A stretch of DNA of 45,803 bases, taken from contig NZ_NADJ01000010.1 in assembly GCF_002196705.1 (NCBI RefSeq), positions 45,105 to 90,907 on the forward strand. The letters are read 5' to 3'. Shown in pieces: positions 21,368 to 30,010 of this stretch (within the stretch, counting starts at the first letter, position 1; each line of letters opens with the position of its first letter). The position numbers and the translations under genes are program-made. The DNA is from Desulfosporosinus sp. FKB (GTDB lineage Bacteria; Bacillota; Desulfitobacteriia; Desulfitobacteriales; Desulfitobacteriaceae). The notes beneath the pieces are model-generated. The model saw only the letters and a program-made list of their open reading frames with translations, did not search any database and was not told the origin of the DNA.

Positions 21368-21567
<200 letters not shown>

Positions 21568-21701
21568 TACTTTTCATCGTTCTTAATTTCCCGCAAAGCC
21601 GTTTTAACCCTTTCCCCCTCCGATGATGATGACCCGCAATTTTTAGGGCATTTTTGCACTCTTACCCTCAGGAAGTATCTTACCAAGGAGCCGCCGCAGT
21701 A

Positions 21702-21923
21702 TTAGTCCTCGTCAAATTTCTCTGCAACCTCAAATCCCTCCTCGTTAATGGCATCACATAATTCGTCCTCCGTTAATACGCCTCGGCCATACTCTACAAT
21801 GATGGATTCTTCCTCTAAATTTAACCTTACCTTATCAACACCGCTCAGGCCCTCTAAAATCCGGGATACAGCACGGCCCATCGGCATATTGTCCATGCCC
21901 TCAACAACAATAACCTTTTTCAT
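21702..21923 (-). CDS. HMA-fold protein lacking the metal-binding CxxC
   Basis: A 73-aa protein with AGGAGGAG before the ATG. The pattern is that of CopZ/HMA domains: VIVVEGM, then a helix ending in LEGLSGVDKVRLNLEEESII and VEYGRGVLTEDELCDAINEE. Where HMA proteins have CxxC after GM(x), this one has N12-M13-P14-M15, so both metal-ligand cysteines are missing. The fold seems conserved, so it may bind something else or use Met residues. It is the last gene of a four-gene operon and starts 9 bp after the ACP-like gene. Confidence 0.75.
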   Translation of the reverse strand: MKKVIVVEGMDNMPMGRAVSRILEGLSGVDKVRLNLEEESIIVEYGRGVLTEDELCDAINEEGFEVAEKFDED

Positions 21924-21932
21924 TTTCTCCTC

Positions 21933-22166
21933 CTATTCTGCAATCAGTGCCTCCACATATTTGACCACATCATTCACTGTCTGGAATGTATGAACATCTT
22001 CATCGTGAATTGTCACTTCAAAACGCTTTTCAATTTCAATCATCAGTTTTGCCATATCAATCGGCTCAATATCGTATTCCGATGTCAAAGGTGTTTTTCC
22101 ACTTAAGTGATTTTCAGAAACACTTATGACCTGGCAGAGCAAAGAAATAATAATATCCAATGTCAT
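21933..22166 (-). CDS. acyl-carrier-like protein lacking the phosphopantetheine Ser
   Basis: A 77-aa protein with AAGGAGGT before the ATG. It has the four-helix ACP pattern: LDIIISLLCQVISVSENHL, then IDMAKLMIEIEKRFEVTIHD and TVNDVVKYVEALI. The canonical D-S-L motif at the start of helix II is replaced by E34-P35-I36-D37, so the Ser that carries 4'-phosphopantetheine is a Pro. It cannot be modified in the normal way. It lies 14 bp after helD and 9 bp before the HMA-like gene. A structural or regulatory partner role is inferred. Confidence 0.75.
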   Translation of the reverse strand: MTLDIIISLLCQVISVSENHLSGKTPLTSEYDIEPIDMAKLMIEIEKRFEVTIHDEDVHTFQTVNDVVKYVEALIAE

Positions 22167-22180
22167 ATTCCGATACCTCC

Positions 22181-24421
22181 TTAAATGAATGAGCTTTTTT
22201 CACCGGCATAAAACAGATTGAGCCGGTGCAGAGCACGGGTGCTGGCAATATACAGCAGCTTTTTATCATCAACTGAATTATAATGGCGTTTATCGACACC
22301 GTAAATTAGCACAGAATCAAACTCCAATCCTTTTGACATAGTGATAGGGATAATAAATACTCCTACTGTGTTTAGGTTTTCACCCGAATGCACTAAATGG
22401 AGGGGAATTTTAGCTTTTAAACGGCTATAAAGAGATTCCGCTTCCTGTGCATCTTTACAGATAATCCCGATAGACCCATAGCCTTGGCTTTTACTATAAA
22501 CAGCTTCTGCGATTATTTTTTCATCAAGCAGATCCAGGCTACCGGCTTCGATAACCTGCGGTATGTCGCCGTTGCGGTTAAAACTTTCAAAGAGGGTACC
22601 ATTGTCCAAAAACTGCATACTGAATGAGAGTATTTCTTTGGTACATCGAAAGCTTTTATTCATGACCATTAAGCAGGAGCTGTTCGGCTGTATAATCTCC
22701 GTAATTCCCTCATACAAGCTCATAGTTTCCTGTTTTTCAATCGTTTGATTGATATCACCTAAAATAGTATAGCGTGCATTGGGAAACAATCGCTTTAATA
22801 TCTCAAAATGAAGACTGTAGTAGTCTTGCGCTTCGTCTATAACAACCTGTTTGATCTGTCGATAGCTATCCTTGGCACCATCATTTGTACCAATCAATAG
22901 CTGCAAATAGGCTGCTGCCAAAGCATCTTCATTTTGAAGCGTAGAGTCTGCGAGCTGTTTTTGTGAGTAAGACAGTATTTCTTCAATGTTGTCCGGCAAT
23001 TCAATTTCTGCTGAAAGAGAACGTAATAAACCAGCTGTGTTTATCAATTTTTTATACAGCGAAACACTATCCAATTTAATAAATGCATCAACTTTTTGAG
23101 CGAGAAGTGTGCTTTCTTCGATAGACAGCTCTCTGGCATACTCTTCCCAATCAAAAGGATGCTCAGGGTCTTCCCTTGCTTGCCGCAACAATTTAGGCAT
23201 CCGATCTTTACGCATCTCATGTATTTCGTCAAAAATATGCTTGCGCAGGTGGCTCAGTTTTACCGTTAAGCTCATATTACCGTTCATTTTCAGCAGGCGG
23301 TCTTTTAGATACTGCCCCGTAAAAACTGTTTTTCCATCATACTCTATATCGGGAAAGACGATATGAGATGTTGGCAGGCTGTCGGCATATCTATTTAGTA
23401 TTCTGCCAAAAGCTCTGGACATTTTAAAGGCCATGGACTGCTTTTGCAGAGCTTTCCCAGCGGGTGATGCATAGGAGATCAGCATTTCGGTTTGGCTGTA
23501 GCGGGACTGGAATGCTATTTTATCCGGCAAACTACCGGTTACCAAATCATCAAAGACAACAGATCTCACTTCATCCTCACCAAGCTCCGGCAGTACATCA
23601 GAAATATATTGTTCGAATAGTGTATTAGGCGATAGAATAATAATATCCGATGATTTTAGCCGGCTTGAAAGCCCCTGATATTTGAGGTAAGCCACACGAT
23701 GCAAAGCAATAGAGGTTTTGCCGCTTCCGGCAATCCCCTGCACCATAAGCAAGTCGTGAGTTACATCACGGATGGCGATATCCTGATCTTTTTGGATGGT
23801 TTCTACGATGGTTTTCATTTTGCTGGAGGTATTTCCGGATAGCATTTTACGTAAAAACTCATCCGCGATCTGAACATCGGCATCAAAAAAATACTCCAAG
23901 ACTCCTTTTTTTATTTCATATTGCCGTTTCAGCCCAATATCTCCGGCGATGCGGCCACTCGGTGCATCATAATAAGCATTTCCGGTTTCAAAACGGTAAA
24001 ACAGGCTGGCGATAGGAGAACGCCAATCGTAGATGGCGATTTTTTTCTCCTGATCATTAAATAATGTTCCTCTGCCAATGTATACTTTTTCGTATTGTTC
24101 TTTAGCCTCCGAACAAAAATCAATCCGGGCAAAATAGGCTGACCGCAATAATCGTTCCAGCAACTGTATTTTTTTTGCACTGGATTCTATTGCCAAAGTG
24201 TTATTGGCAAGCGGTTGATAAAATTGACTTAACTGAACAGCTCCATCAAAATCATCTGCGGAATGGGAGGCATTCTCCCACATATCCCGGTTTGTTTCTC
24301 TTAAAGCTTCTCTGCTTTGGGAGTTGTCTTTTTCAGTATCCTCCAATTGCTGGTGAATAACCCTAAGAATCTCATTGTAATGAGCAAGTTCAATATTTAA
24401 TTCCTGTTCATAGTTTTCCAT
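22181..24421 (-). CDS. helD: HelD-type RNA polymerase recycling ATPase (SF1)
   Basis: A 746-aa protein with AGGTG before the ATG. The N-terminal ~70 residues form the charged coiled-coil arm that enters the RNA polymerase secondary channel. IGRGTLFNDQEKKIAIYDWR is typical of HelD. Walker A is VQGIAGSGKTS (residues ~228-237), motif II VIDEAQDYY, and the C-terminal RecA domain ends with MSKGLEFDSVLIYGVDK and YIASTRALHRL. HelD proteins release stalled or antibiotic-bound RNA polymerase. It is the second gene in the TetR-headed operon. Confidence 0.9.
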   Translation of the reverse strand: MENYEQELNIELAHYNEILRVIHQQLEDTEKDNSQSREALRETNRDMWENASHSADDFDGAVQLSQFYQPLANNTLAIESSAKKIQLLERLLRSAYFARIDFCSEAKEQYEKVYIGRGTLFNDQEKKIAIYDWRSPIASLFYRFETGNAYYDAPSGRIAGDIGLKRQYEIKKGVLEYFFDADVQIADEFLRKMLSGNTSSKMKTIVETIQKDQDIAIRDVTHDLLMVQGIAGSGKTSIALHRVAYLKYQGLSSRLKSSDIIILSPNTLFEQYISDVLPELGEDEVRSVVFDDLVTGSLPDKIAFQSRYSQTEMLISYASPAGKALQKQSMAFKMSRAFGRILNRYADSLPTSHIVFPDIEYDGKTVFTGQYLKDRLLKMNGNMSLTVKLSHLRKHIFDEIHEMRKDRMPKLLRQAREDPEHPFDWEEYARELSIEESTLLAQKVDAFIKLDSVSLYKKLINTAGLLRSLSAEIELPDNIEEILSYSQKQLADSTLQNEDALAAAYLQLLIGTNDGAKDSYRQIKQVVIDEAQDYYSLHFEILKRLFPNARYTILGDINQTIEKQETMSLYEGITEIIQPNSSCLMVMNKSFRCTKEILSFSMQFLDNGTLFESFNRNGDIPQVIEAGSLDLLDEKIIAEAVYSKSQGYGSIGIICKDAQEAESLYSRLKAKIPLHLVHSGENLNTVGVFIIPITMSKGLEFDSVLIYGVDKRHYNSVDDKKLLYIASTRALHRLNLFYAGEKSSFI

Positions 24422-24496
24422 ATAAGCACCTCATTTCCAAGAGCGAAGTCTAAATTCAGCGGCCTGACAATCATTTACATTGCCCGCTGCTTACGC

Positions 24497-25099
24497 CTAA
24501 TCACTGCTTGCAAGACATAATCGAAACATACGGACGGCTTCACGGGTAATATAGGTCTTCAGCTCAGCTTCATTTGCAATTAAACCTCTGCCTAAAAGAT
24601 AATTTGAAATTTCACCCACAATGTAGCAATGGGTATTATGAAGCACTCGTTTGGTCGTATCTGCATTTGGGTATTCGCCGTAAAGTTCTTGCCATATGTC
24701 GGATATATGCTGATTCAGCATTTTGTTTGTTGCTTCTGTCGCTTCAATATCTCCCTGTGGACGGTCGCCATCAATATATTCATGCCACGCCAGTCGGAAC
24801 CATCCTTTGTTATCCAGATACATTTCGACAAAGGCTTCAAAGAAATAGGTAAGTCGCAGTTCCGCAGTATTAGCTATATCCAGCTTTTTTCTGAGCATCT
24901 TCATAAATATCTCCTGTACGGCAGCGTGTGTTTCCCATAATAAATCATTATATGAGGGGAAATAATTATATAAATTTGTATGGGCGCACCCTAATGTCCG
25001 GGCTATTCCACGAAGATTAAGCCCCCGCAAGTCACTCTTATTCCGCATAAGCTCAAGAGCCGTATCCACAATTTGCTCTTTTGTTATATTCTTTTTCAC
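24497..25099 (-). CDS. TetR-family transcriptional regulator of the helD operon
   Basis: About 200 aa from GTG 25099 (MKKNITKEQIVDTALELMRN), chosen because GGAGGTG lies four bases before it; the longer frame would start inside the promoter. The HTH reads LRGIARTLGCAHTNLYNYFP. The C-terminal ligand domain has a WHG-like part (RLAWHEYIDGDRPQGDIEAT). It precedes helD by 75 bp. A near-perfect 40-bp palindrome overlaps its transcription start, so it should repress its own operon until it binds a ligand, perhaps an RNA-polymerase-targeting or wall-active compound. Confidence 0.9.
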   Translation of the reverse strand: MKKNITKEQIVDTALELMRNKSDLRGLNLRGIARTLGCAHTNLYNYFPSYNDLLWETHAAVQEIFMKMLRKKLDIANTAELRLTYFFEAFVEMYLDNKGWFRLAWHEYIDGDRPQGDIEATEATNKMLNQHISDIWQELYGEYPNADTTKRVLHNTHCYIVGEISNYLLGRGLIANEAELKTYITREAVRMFRLCLASSD

Positions 25100-25111
25100 T
25101 TTGCACCTCCA

Positions 25112-25177
25112 GCTTACATTACCACCGGTAATTACCGTCGGTAATGTAAGCATACGCCTCTGCTCCCTTTTTGTCAA
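25112..25177 (-). promoter_or_regulatory. promoter and TetR operator of the helD operon
   Basis: On the minus strand TTGACA (25172-25177), 17 bases, TATGCT (25149-25154) form a sigma-A promoter. A 40-bp palindrome (25112-25151; outer arms GCTTACATTACC, centre GGTAATTACC, four mismatched positions) overlaps the -10 and the start. It has repeated ATTACC/GGTAAT half-sites. Binding would block RNA polymerase directly. Confidence 0.85.
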
Positions 25178-25181
25178 AAAA

Positions 25182-25232
25182 ATATGCAAAAACAGGGTGT
25201 AGGAACCGACTGCCGGCTGCTACACCCTGTTT
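25182..25232 (-). terminator. intrinsic terminator upstream of the TetR gene
   Basis: AAACAGGGTGTAG (25190-25202) pairs perfectly with 25220-25232. On the minus strand the stem is followed by TTTTTGCATATTTTTTT. It insulates the helD operon from leftward transcription entering from 25.8 kb. Confidence 0.8.
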
Positions 25233-25307: not shown

Positions 25308-25355
25308 GGGCTTGTACTAAGAATCTTACGCACGTAAGATTCTTAGTACAAGCCC
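25308..25355. repeat. palindromic repeat copy A (23-bp stem)
   Basis: GGGCTTGTACTAAGAATC continues to TTACG, two loop bases, then the exact reverse complement. A related copy lies at 29967-30010 (40 of 44 core bases identical). One stem pair differs in both arms between copies (T-A versus C-G), so the base pairing is conserved while the sequence changes. Confidence 0.85.
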
Positions 25356-26212: not shown

Positions 26213-28678
26213 TTATTTAGGGATTGTTATCTCAATAATTTGAGTGGTTTCAACTTTAGTAATAATAGGTGTGTACAAATCAACTTCAACCTCAGGTGTT
26301 TCGATCGAAAGGACAAGAGCATATCTTACTTTCTCGTTGTATTTACCGAGATGGCTTCTTTCTCGCCACCAACCGATAACCGGATAAACTGCAACATAAT
26401 TTGCATCACACAAATTAACAGCTAAGTCTTCACAAAAATCAGAATGTATTGAGCCCACGTCGCGATTTCCAACACCCAAATACCAATCCCGACTACTTCC
26501 ATCTCCACTATCTTTTCTGTCATCACCACGCATTTTAATATTAACGCGTTTTTTGAAATCTTCTAATGTTTCATTAGAGTTGATAACATCAAACCTAAGA
26601 CCGCAGGAAGGATATCTATACTTGTCTTTCCACCCCACTTCTCCCGGACCTGGCTCTATAAAATAGGAAAGAGTAGCCCTTATTATTGCTTTTGTCTCTC
26701 CTAAAGACTGTAATACTTCTTTTGGCCAGGGTATATCGTGCAAGTGCATTTCATTCATTTGCTTTTTAGTAAATGGCTGTAATTCGCCTTGTATAATCAA
26801 ATTCACCGAATTATCAACGCACTGAATTGCTTTTGACAAATCTGGAACACCATAACCACAAGTACGCAGCAACAATTTCCTGCCCTTTGTTTTGGTATCT
26901 TCTTTGCAAAACTGTCTATGCATACTTTCGGTCCATCTTGCAGAATGCACTAATAAAGCTCGTACTGTTTCGGGCCATATACCCGGATATTCTGCATAAA
27001 TCTGTGCCGCCATCCATGATGCTTGCGCAGTCGCTGAACTCGTTCCCCAAGTAGTTGAGAACGGGCGTACTAAATGTTTGTGATATGTAGTCAAAAGCGA
27101 TAAATCTTCGCACTCAGTATAGTCTGTATCATTTGTAGCCATATTACCGCCATCTAGAAGTATTTCAGGTTTGATTGGCCATTTATTACTCCATGTTACA
27201 GAAGTAGAACTATAAGGTGACAATTGCCCTACATCAGCAACCGGGTGGAAATGCTTATAATTAGAGTCTGAAATCCGGATATCATTTGCTATGGCCCCGA
27301 CAGTGACTGCATTCCAAGATTGCCCCGGATTTTCAACCCCATGAAGAATACTCGAATCAGGATAGTCATTATTAGCTAGTTCTGCTGGAAATACATTACC
27401 GGCGCTAATAAAAAACAAACGTTTTTCGCCGTTTTCGTTTGCGCCTGAAGTGATACTATCCACTGCAGCAGACCAGGAAGTAGGGCTGCCATCTTCTGTA
27501 TTATAATATGGTGAAGTTACAGCCATGCATAAGGTTCTATCCGCTGACGGATTAGATATCTCCGCCAACGCAACAGCTTGTTCAGTAATTGCCCCATATA
27601 ACTCTATAGGATTTTCTCCTTTTGGTGGTAGAATTTTAACGGACTCAATTTCATGGTTAATGACTAACCTATTGTGGTCTAACAATTTATCCTTCAAATT
27701 GTGATATAAAGCTATCCCCGCCATTTCAGTCCCATGCCCCATATGGTCAGTTGTTCCCCAAGAATCGTTAACAGTTTGTACAGTATTTGTACCTTTTATT
27801 GCCCGAGAAATTAAAGGATGTGAATTGTTTAGCCCTGTGTCCAATTAGCAGACAGAAGAATTACTGTCCATAAATTCCGTTCGATTCAATAATTCTTCAG
27901 CCCATTCCTGTTGTTCTTCACCATATAGTGTATCAAAGAAACTCGTAGGTTCAGATGCTCTGCGAAATTCAGTGATATATTCGCAGCAACTGATCAGGTT
28001 AGATAATTGAGGTTTATTGGCCTTGATCAGATGAACTATACGTTCCGGAAAAATCAATTTGTTGTGATCAATATCTATTTCCAATGTTCGGCAACACTCT
28101 GAGATGTCAGTTAAAGCATTTTCAAGAAATAAATTATCGTATCTAATCCATACTTCACACCATTGAGCGACTTCGTTGGGAATATCCTCTGGTTTTCCTA
28201 TCCAAAATGAATCTAACATCGCAACTCTTATGTCATCAATGCTGCGCACTAAATCATTATGTTTGGGGATTCCTTTTTCAGTAACTTCGGATGAATATGC
28301 TTCAATTTTTTTAATGAAGTAGGATTCCTTTCCCGCAGGGATATACACCGTTGCCCTAATTGTTCCCGTTTCTTCATCGGTTTTTACATTCAAAAGGCGT
28401 ATACCCTGAGTTCTGTTTTCCAAGCTTTTAATTGCCAAATCATGTTTGACTGCGCTGGAAAACTCTAGGTACACGCCTTCTTTATATCTTATTGCAGCAA
28501 CTTGCTTTTGAGTTGCTGAACGCTCGTAGCATTCGTTCAATTTTCTCTCAATAAACATAGCATGTGCCTTGCTATTTTCTCGTTGGGGGTATTTTTTCTC
28601 AACTGGAGTTGAACGAGAAACGTACGAAATGGATGTGTTTGTGTCATGCAAAAAGATATTCTTCTTCTCAACCGACAA
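26213..28678 (-). pseudogene. ietS: IetS-like subtilase, split by one in-frame TAA
   Basis: A TTG start at 28678, with GGAAAGGAGG inside the end of ietA, opens a frame of 277 residues that ends at TAA 27845-27847. The same frame then continues for 543 residues. Full length would be ~821 aa with codon 278 as the stop. N-terminal part: IetS-type region ending in EQQEWAEELLNRTEFM. C-terminal part: S8 peptidase with Asp280 in LDTGLNNSHP, His315 in HMGHGTEMAG and Ser547 in WGTSSATAQAS. IetAS is a plasmid-borne toxin-antitoxin pair and a reported anti-phage system. The TAA sits where homologues have an aliphatic residue directly before the catalytic Asp. It is a point mutation, a sequence error or readthrough; the rest is intact. 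Confidence 0.8.
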
Positions 28679-28681
28679 CCG

Positions 28682-29647
28682 TTACGCCTCCTTTCCAGAA
28701 TATAGCGTTAACCTTTCTTTAACCAGGTTCAGCATCTTGGCCTGGGTTATTTTATTATCAGCCAAGATGGAATCCTTAATAGCATCTTCACATACTCTGA
28801 TTATTTCGGCATGACTTAATACAAGCGATTCTTCAATTAATTGAGTAGAGGGCACAAAGTCACTTTGATAAGCTGCAAGCTTATATTGATACAGCCGTTT
28901 TACTTCGCTTTCAGTGGGCATTGAATAATGCAAAACATCGTCAAAACGCCTAAACAATGCTTGATCCAGCAATTTTTGGTTGTTAGTAGCCGCAACAATA
29001 ATGCTCTCTGATTTATCCTGTTCAATAAACTGCAGAAAGGAGTTCAGTATTCTTCGCATTTCTCCAACTTCATTATCCAAGTTTCTATCTGCCCCAATAG
29101 CATCAAATTCATCAAAAAAATATACGCCGATTGAATTCTCAACTGAATCAAAAATCTGTCTCAATTTCGAGCTGGTTTCACCCATAAATTTTGTAACCAA
29201 CTTATCCATCTGGACTGTATAAAGGGGTAACCCAGTTTCAGAAGCTATTACTGAAGCCGTAAATGTCTTTCCAGTTCCCGGCTTCCCTTCAATAAGAATT
29301 TTACGACGATTACTCATCCCATAACTTCTCAGTTTGTTTCTATTTTTAAATTCATTTAAGATTCTTTTGATTCTATCATGAATCTCGTCAGATACAATTA
29401 AATCCTTCAATCTTTCAGTTGGAATGGACATTGTAAGCATAGGATTATTTTGCATCTGATTAAAATGAAGTATATTCGCTCTGGCATTTCCAGTTTTTTC
29501 AGCCAGCTTCTTCAATTCCCGTGCAAGGGTTTCGTGGTTAAGTTTGGCCTCATAAGCAGCAATTTGCAGTACTACAGTTTTGAATTTCTCATTGTCATTA
29601 TCATTATGAGCTTTGATTAAGCTTTTAATTTGATCTGCAGTAGCCAT
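28682..29647 (-). CDS. ietA: IetA-like AAA+ ATPase
   Basis: A 321-aa protein with AAGGAGG before the ATG. An N-terminal helical region (to ~residue 75) is followed by an AAA+ module: Walker A GKPGTGKT (121-128), pore-loop segment TKFMGETSSKL, Walker B VYFFDEFDAIG, sensor 1 VAATNN and Arg finger ALFRRFDD. The layout is that of small ATPases paired with subtilases (IetA). It would control or feed substrates to the protease encoded three bases downstream. The first 60 bp upstream show no strong promoter. Confidence 0.85.
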   Translation of the reverse strand: MATADQIKSLIKAHNDNDNEKFKTVVLQIAAYEAKLNHETLARELKKLAEKTGNARANILHFNQMQNNPMLTMSIPTERLKDLIVSDEIHDRIKRILNEFKNRNKLRSYGMSNRRKILIEGKPGTGKTFTASVIASETGLPLYTVQMDKLVTKFMGETSSKLRQIFDSVENSIGVYFFDEFDAIGADRNLDNEVGEMRRILNSFLQFIEQDKSESIIVAATNNQKLLDQALFRRFDDVLHYSMPTESEVKRLYQYKLAAYQSDFVPSTQLIEESLVLSHAEIIRVCEDAIKDSILADNKITQAKMLNLVKERLTLYSGKEA

Positions 29648-29966: not shown

Positions 29967-30010
29967 GCTTGTACCAGGAATCTTACGCGCGTAAGATTCT
30001 TGGTACAAGC
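29967..30010. repeat. palindromic repeat copy B
   Basis: GCTTGTACCAGGAATC to TTACG, centre CG, then the complementary arm with one G-T pair. It is related to copy A at 25308-25355. The two copies enclose the ietAS genes and the uncertain 76-aa frame. Confidence 0.82.

What the first reader, a model, noticed from the sequence alone, without database searches (positions are those of the whole stretch)
21702..25177. Operon linking TetR, HelD, an acyl-carrier-like and an HMA-like protein
Four genes follow one promoter (TTGACA-17-TATGCT) with gaps of 75, 14 and 9 bp and a terminator at 21542-21567. HelD alone is well known. Coupling it to an ACP-like and an HMA-like protein, both without their active residues, is not something I know. 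They could be adaptor subunits for an RNA-polymerase rescue complex, induced by a compound sensed by the TetR protein.
Basis: partly seen in the sequence, partly recalled or inferred. Interest (0 to 1): 0.72.

Follow-up and report, generated by a model that had tools for sequence, protein, structure and literature searches.

The report
Helper protein for an RNA-polymerase recycler
In a scattered set of anaerobic bacteria, a motor protein that pulls stalled RNA polymerase off DNA is encoded beside a small protein shaped like a fatty-acid carrier that has lost its carrier chemistry, so it is probably an unrecognised partner of the motor.

Summary
The operon is real: tetR-helD-acp-hma on the minus strand, 25177 to 21702, with the stated promoter, gaps and terminator. 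HelD is a bona fide class I RNA-polymerase recycler. The strong result is the helD-acp pair. Six genome scans with a profile of the acp product found 19 distinct carriers, and in all 19 the gene lies next to helD; with the other loci there are 26 distinct pairs, mostly in unrelated surroundings. The carrier serine is absent in 25 of 26, and the acidic helix that enzymes dock on is neutralised (charge -2 to +2, against -6 to -4 in 44 ordinary carriers). The family is one branch. On the HelD tree the pair needs four changes, read as one gain and three losses. It is most likely a dedicated, non-catalytic partner of one HelD subclass. The hma gene (4 loci, no metal motif) and tetR (3 loci) are known only from one shallow group, where homology runs from the -35 box to the hma stop. 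The tetR operator occurs once in the genome. Binding, binding site and inducer are untested. A delta-subunit replacement role is not supported. My searches found no paper describing the pair.

The parts
25172..25177 (-). -35 box TTGACA
   Evidence: conserved in L018 and L201
25149..25154 (-). -10 box TATGCT
   Evidence: conserved in L018 and L201
25112..25151 (.). probable TetR operator: 40-nt palindrome of two ATTACCNNNGGTAA boxes overlapping the -10
   Evidence: single place in own genome; binding not tested
24497..25099 (-). tetR-type repressor gene (GTG start), 200 aa
   Evidence: 91.5% identical in L018 and 92% in L201
22181..24421 (-). helD, class I RNA polymerase recycling motor, 746 aa
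   Evidence: NCBIfam HelD_BACSU 561.8 bits, cut-off 419; PDB 6wvk_H E 9e-112
23102..23224 (-). HelD residues 400-440 in the clamp arm/bumper: residues typical of ACP-linked HelDs cluster here, and 411-434 is deleted in the 50-row ACP-less clade (candidate docking region, inferred after the fact)
   Evidence: domain limits from PMC7749167 section 7 and PMC7749165 passages
21933..22166 (-). serine-less ACP-fold protein, 77 aa, HelD-linked family
   Evidence: PF00550 E 5e-9; profile, residue table, tree, model
22062..22064 (-). codon for Pro35 at the place of the phosphopantetheine serine
21702..21923 (-). HMA/CopZ-like protein without CxxC, 73 aa
   Evidence: CopZ model E 1.5e-10, 41.1 bits against a cut-off of 91
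21541..21568 (-). intrinsic-terminator-like stem, 10 pairs, listed on both strands

Best explanation
This is a repressor-controlled copy of a conserved two-protein module: a class I HelD motor plus a dedicated ACP-fold partner that has lost carrier chemistry. The ACP-like protein most likely binds HelD as a small regulatory subunit, perhaps on the clamp arm ('bumper') that pries open the RNA polymerase main channel, and tunes ATPase cycling, arm movement or release from polymerase, much as AcpP acts on the MukB ATPase. TetR represses the operon from the double operator until a ligand, not known here, frees it. The HMA-like protein looks like a later addition in this lineage, of unknown role, and by sequence not a metal chaperone. 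Shown by computation: family, linkage, loss of carrier features, clustering on the trees, purifying selection, conserved palindrome. Inferred: binding, its site, effect on HelD, repression and induction.
For: Six genome scans give 19 distinct carriers with E at or below 9e-24; all 19 lie next to helD. The next hits listed were no better than about 3e-18; of these I fetched 44 genes (45 rows, L182 and L204 being one gene), all keep Asp-Ser-Leu, and BLAST found no HelD in the pieces fetched around them, mostly 1.5 kb each way. All 26 distinct pairs are on the same strand with the ACP downstream, while flanking genes differ except among close relatives (by eye). Ser absent in 25 of 26, Lys/Arg at the invariant helix-II Glu in 26 of 26; helix-II charge -2 to +2, mean +0.3, against -6 to -4, mean -5.7. 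HelD-ACPs are one side of a branch, 100/100. On the HelD tree the label needs 4 changes, shuffled mean 23.1. HelD and ACP identities correlate, r 0.87 over 25 loci, 0 of 2000 permutations. ACP fold: pLDDT 91.5, TM up to 0.90 to solved ACPs. Purifying selection. [quoted passage not shown]
Against: No physical interaction is shown; genes inherited together give correlated identities without contact. L023 and L088 have the HelD but no such ACP, and a 50-row HelD clade (47 unlinked, 3 undetermined) lacks it, so it is dispensable for HelD as such. L023 and L088 keep most of the residues typical of linked HelDs, as very recent losses or as residues unrelated to the ACP would. L019 has a serine, though after Thr rather than Asp. 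The 411-434 deletion is one event, and the segment is also present in outgroup HelDs without the ACP. The residue comparison was made after the fact. The profile was built from HelD-linked members. The ACP tree rests on 78 columns, its bootstrap had not settled, and long branches meet in it. Pfam PP-binding does call the window protein above its cut-off (36.7 against 20.8).
Confidence: 0.62

Rival explanations
1. The ACP-like protein replaces the RNA polymerase delta subunit as HelD's helper in bacteria without delta.
For: Delta acts with HelD in B. subtilis and is absent from most of the Clostridia with helD sampled in PMC8655204 (section 3.4; PMC7749165 passages). The ACP-like proteins are small and acidic overall, mean net charge -10.
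Against: Delta-like genes were found in 8 of 21 distinct ACP-linked genomes (7 over the cut-off), the window's own included (E 1.7e-19), and in 1 of 15 genomes without the pair (0 over the cut-off). There is no replacement pattern; if anything the reverse.
Confidence: 0.08
2. The ACP-like protein is a decoy or regulator of lipid synthesis (for example it sequesters fatty-acid enzymes), linking membrane state to transcription.
For: ACP fold kept in full; E. coli ACP has a partner outside lipid synthesis (PMC8602292 abstract).
Against: The acidic recognition helix is neutralised and the helix-II Glu is Lys/Arg in 26 of 26; I saw no recurring lipid gene among the nearest neighbours printed, which were read by eye and not scanned against families.
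Confidence: 0.1
3. It is an active carrier of an unusual kind, loaded on another residue.
For: L019 has a serine at the right place.
Against: Serine absent in 25 of 26 and the preceding Asp absent in 25 of 26; no Ser, Thr or Cys among the invariant columns.
Confidence: 0.03
4. The operon is an antibiotic-protection cassette: TetR senses a polymerase inhibitor, HelD frees the polymerase, and the small proteins are auxiliary.
For: HelD raises rifampicin resistance in B. subtilis (start of the abstract of PMC12802891 in the listing); operator found only here in the genome; the cassette lies in different surroundings in three genomes.
Against: No inducer evidence; in the other pairs no tetR was found by BLAST. 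Compatible with the best explanation rather than opposed to it.
Confidence: 0.35

Closest known systems
HelD class I (B. subtilis HelD; NCBIfam NF041464)
   Same: Walker A, DEAQ and the conserved Trp are kept over the full length; above the family cut-off
   Different: Encoded with a serine-less ACP-fold protein; a subclade with its own typical residues, among others at 400-440 and 538-542
AcpP-MukB in E. coli (PMC8602292, abstract and outline)
   Same: ACP fold associated with a motor ATPase that acts on nucleic acids
   Different: AcpP is the housekeeping carrier of fatty-acid synthesis; here a dedicated paralogue encoded beside the motor, without the serine. Binding is shown there, not here
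RNA polymerase delta subunit (RpoE) with HelD
   Same: Small protein partnered with HelD
   Different: Different fold (delta NTD resembles the sigma 1.1 domain by PMC7749165); it co-occurs with the ACP-like gene rather than being replaced by it
HelR of actinobacteria (NCBIfam motor_HelR)
   Same: HelD-type protein that dissociates rifampicin-stalled polymerase (start of the PMC10719064 abstract in the listing)
   Different: Much weaker match, 126 bits against a cut-off of 1100 and 122 against 750; no ACP partner in the passages I read

Membership tests
HelD class I | Curated whole-protein score | tested here: met
   561.8 bits against 419
HelD class I | Walker A Lys (K239 in B. subtilis), DEAQ, conserved Trp (W137) | tested here: met
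   GSGKTS, IDEAQDY and YDWR aligned to 6wvk_H over residues 6-746; K239 and W137 roles from PMC7749167 section 7
HelD class I | Removes stalled RNA polymerase using ATP | not testable with these tools
   needs biochemistry
Acyl carrier protein | Helical ACP fold | tested here: met
   AlphaFold2 pLDDT 91.5, TM 0.90 to 3gzl; PF00550 36.7 bits, cut-off 20.8
Acyl carrier protein | Phosphopantetheine Asp-Ser-Leu | tested here: not met
   Glu-Pro-Ile in the window; Ser absent in 25 of 26, Asp absent in 25 of 26
Acyl carrier protein | Acidic recognition helix II (its role is recalled, from no call) | tested here: not met
   charge -2 to +2 against -6 to -4
Acyl carrier protein | NCBIfam curated cut-offs | tested here: not met
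   window protein best 42.5 bits against 66; scores of the other 25 members against the cut-offs were not shown
HMA/CopZ metallochaperone | beta-alpha-beta-beta-alpha-beta fold | tested here: met
   predicted order E-H-E-E-H-E, pLDDT 74 from only 4 sequences
HMA/CopZ metallochaperone | GMxCxxC metal site (motif recalled) | tested here: not met
   GMDNMPM in three and DMDNLQM in L020, no Cys there in any of 4; Pfam HMA 17.5 bits, below 24.8
TetR repressors | N-terminal HTH of the TetR superfamily | tested here: inconclusive
   TetR_N 18.0 bits, below 24; SmcR E 1.5e-5 over residues 7-132
TetR repressors | Palindromic site at its own promoter | tested here: met
   binding itself not tested
TetR repressors | Ligand-induced release from DNA | not testable with these tools
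   no ligand known

The most novel reading that the evidence does not exclude
A previously undescribed subunit class for RNA polymerase recycling: a serine-less ACP paralogue that docks on the HelD clamp arm and gates its mechanical cycle, ancestral to one large HelD subclade and lost together with a 24-residue piece of that arm in part of it.
Probability: 0.4. Interest if true: 0.78.

Novelty: new variant of a known kind. Interest (0 to 1): 0.62.

Why it matters
HelD clears stalled or antibiotic-blocked RNA polymerase. The helper protein discussed for B. subtilis HelD in the passages I read is delta, which most Clostridia sampled there lack. A conserved, dedicated partner would show how one HelD subclass is controlled. 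It would also be a clear case of an ACP turned from a metabolite carrier into a structural subunit, testable with two purified proteins.

Tried and rejected
Delta replacement: rejected on distribution. Strain-specific accident: rejected. Plasmid or phage spread of the ACP: no match in PLSDB by tblastn at 1e-4 with the window protein alone, and none confirmed in viral contigs, where 45 stretches matched a pattern; both searches are of limited reach. TetR regulon: no second operator in the genome. ACP remnants behind ACP-less helD genes: none convincing among 93 loci with at least 450 bp downstream; best E 0.028. A clade-specific HelD insert as docking site: rejected as an insert, because residues 411-434 are also in the 12 outgroup HelDs; only the deletion tracks the 50-row ACP-less clade, and L023 and L088 keep the segment. 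A HelD-ACP complex was not predicted: the tool folds one chain and gives no interface measure.

Rows dropped, merged or doubled: the HelD scan kept 80 of 127 relatives. L020 (HelD fragment of 496 aa) was left out of the HelD tree and of the identity correlation; six loci with under 450 bp downstream were labelled 'cut'. The tree's 124 rows are 118 different; L138 and L205 are one gene, and L077/L134 and L084/L132 are identical. L027 and L029 are genomes G399 and G491 fetched twice; L005-L009 were replaced by wider stretches L165-L169 outside alignments A1 and A2. Of 45 canonical ACP rows, L182 and L204 are one gene and two more pairs are identical. In one search, 12 outgroup HelDs were chosen by hand, and 58 of 124 rows. 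The delta tally of 38 genomes holds two duplicates, hence my 21 and 15; one of the 8 positives (L020's genome) is a MAG whose 4-kb contig may be misbinned, and one (G399) is below the cut-off. An earlier count said 10 tails; the count is 11. The printouts were cut. Alignment A4 was made and not used.
Full report
OBSERVATION. The operon is as described: tetR, helD, acp-like and hma-like genes on the minus strand behind TTGACA-17-TATGCT, with gaps of 75, 14 and 9 bp and a terminator-like stem at 21541-21568. The tetR start is best placed at the GTG of 25099, where the two complete relatives have ATG. Overlapping the -10 lies a 40-nt palindrome built of two ATTACCNNNGGTAA boxes that share one base. 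The boxes and the spacing are conserved in L018 and L201 while the three central bases vary, which is what a bound repressor would preserve. A search of the whole genome with up to 3 mismatches found this one place, against 0 for the control. The repressor is therefore probably local to this operon.

THE GENES. HelD is a clear class I member (561.8 bits against a cut-off of 419; aligned over residues 6-746 with B. subtilis HelD of 6wvk, E 9e-112) with the ATP-binding Lys, DEAQ and conserved Trp in place. The genome holds a second HelD without an ACP (L138/L205). The 77-aa protein is an ACP by fold but has Glu-Pro-Ile at the Asp-Ser-Leu site. The 73-aa protein is HMA-like by sub-threshold matches and predicted topology and lacks the metal cysteines in all 4 relatives seen. 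dN/dS for the four genes between window, L018 and L201 is 0.04-0.17, so all are kept by selection.

HOW FAR THE LINKAGE GOES. A scan of public genomes with HelD kept 80 of 127 relatives. Of these 80, 12 have the ACP-like gene on the same strand behind helD by BLAST: L018, L019, L020, L021, L022, L024, L025, L026, L027, L028, L029 and L036. Profile scans then covered 82, 398, 63, 46, 393 and 225 genomes, with some overlap. At E at or below 9e-24 they found 6, 3, 4, 3, 5 and 1 carriers, 19 distinct. All 19 sit next to helD. The next hits listed began near 3e-18; the 44 genes fetched from them all keep Asp-Ser-Leu, and BLAST found no HelD in the pieces fetched around them, mostly 1.5 kb each way. 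The profile was built from HelD-linked members, but position was not used in scoring. Together there are 26 distinct pairs, window included; the ACP starts within 206 bp of the helD end, or overlaps it as the ORFs were called, in 25, and 1087 bp away in L024. The genes around the pair differ between lineages apart from close relatives, by eye, so general synteny does not explain it. The family is rare: 1 of 225 genomes in the order of the L028 genome, Clostridium intestinale, and 3 of 398 drawn across the phylum.

WHAT THE ACP HAS LOST. Against 45 canonical rows (44 genes), the 26 HelD-linked proteins lack the serine in 25 cases and carry Lys or Arg at the invariant helix-II Glu in 26. Their helix-II charge is -2 to +2 (mean +0.3) rather than -6 to -4 (mean -5.7). 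They keep Asp-Glu in 'HDEDVH' (26 of 26), while two flanking positions are His in 21 and 22 of 26. They form one side of a branch supported 100/100, on 78 columns and with a bootstrap that had not settled. In 11 of 26 a tail ending in Trp-(Tyr/Phe/His)-Tyr follows. This is the pattern expected of a protein that no longer serves carrier enzymes but keeps a binding surface.

HISTORY. On a tree of 124 HelD rows (118 different; 25 linked, 93 unlinked, 6 undetermined) the ACP label needs 4 changes, against a shuffled mean of 23.1. A hand-picked, rooted subset of 58 also needs 4. The simplest reading is one gain at the base of a clade with SH-aLRT 100, then losses in a mainly Lachnospiraceae-type clade of 50 rows (47 unlinked, 3 undetermined), in L023 and in L088; the count alone cannot tell gain from loss. 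The genomes of L023 and L088 hold only matches in the canonical score range. HelD and ACP identities rise and fall together (r 0.87 over 25 loci, 0 of 2000 permutations), as expected of joint inheritance; this does not by itself show contact. The 50 rows also lack HelD residues 411-434. These map into the clamp arm (aa 292-538 in PMC7749167 section 7) or bumper (aa 339-490 in PMC7749165 passages). Near them, Ser433 (25 of 25 linked, but also 4 of 12 outgroup rows), Ser437 (24 of 25) and Thr438 (23 of 25) are typical of linked HelDs. L023 keeps all three and L088 two, although neither has the ACP. I treat this as a candidate docking site, chosen after the fact.

THE CASSETTE. The DNA matching L018 (86% over 3.5 kb) and L201 (86%) runs from about 25182 to 21700, that is from the -35 box to the hma stop, and blastn found nothing further in the 13-14 kb held of each apart from a short reverse match inside the palindrome. 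The flanking genes differ. The four genes with their promoter have thus moved as one piece, or only they are kept. L019 branches outside this set and has no hma by BLAST, so hma looks like a late addition; tetR cannot be judged there or in L020, because those contigs start just upstream of, or inside, helD.

MECHANISM. The best reading is a dedicated regulatory subunit of HelD. The closest precedent is AcpP on MukB: by the abstract the interaction is needed for the ATPase, and by a section heading apo- and holo-forms both stimulate it (PMC8602292, abstract and outline only). A delta-replacement role is not supported: delta-like genes are present in 8 of 21 ACP-linked genomes (7 over the cut-off) and 1 of 15 others (0 over the cut-off).

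LITERATURE. Searches of the held library listed no paper on HelD with an ACP. Two of them were capped and clogged by the English word 'held' (20 of 91 listed, 15 of 222). The cleanest found four HelD papers, each with no occurrence of 'acyl carrier'. The HelD phylogeny paper PMC8655204 has no occurrence of 'acyl' or 'operon' in its main text; I read its passages and section 3.4. I saw passages of PMC12802891 and PMC10719064, the outline and section 7 of PMC7749167, and passages of PMC7749165. PMC11464796 was seen in the listing only. Subscription papers and preprints are not in the library, so a description elsewhere cannot be excluded.

ORIGIN. The genome of L088 (Gracilibacter) gives the same match coordinates as G064, of the same order as the window, so the window probably comes from a related anaerobic Bacillota; this is inference.

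Noticed in passing
26213-29647, minus strand: An IetAS-like defence pair beside the operon: AAA ATPase (IetA, E 7e-71) and subtilase (IetS, E 1.4e-31), with an unassigned 277-aa protein between them.
   Followed up: partly
25308-25355 and 29969-30008: A perfect palindrome with 23-bp arms upstream of the operon, with a second copy (3 mismatches to the 40-nt core) on the other side of the IetAS genes; it looks like a dispersed repeat. Copies elsewhere in the genome were not counted.
   Followed up: partly
HelD residues 411-434 (23120-23191): A 24-residue piece of the HelD clamp arm is missing in all 50 rows of the ACP-less clade but present in the 12 outgroup rows compared.
   Followed up: partly
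L021, L022, L026, L007, L008, L009, L199, L171, L200, L202, L203: 11 of 26 HelD-linked ACPs carry a C-terminal extension ending in Trp-(Tyr/Phe/His)-Tyr, possibly an extra contact.
   Followed up: no
25190-25232: A stem with 19-nt arms directly upstream of the -35 box, resembling a terminator of whatever precedes the operon.
   Followed up: no
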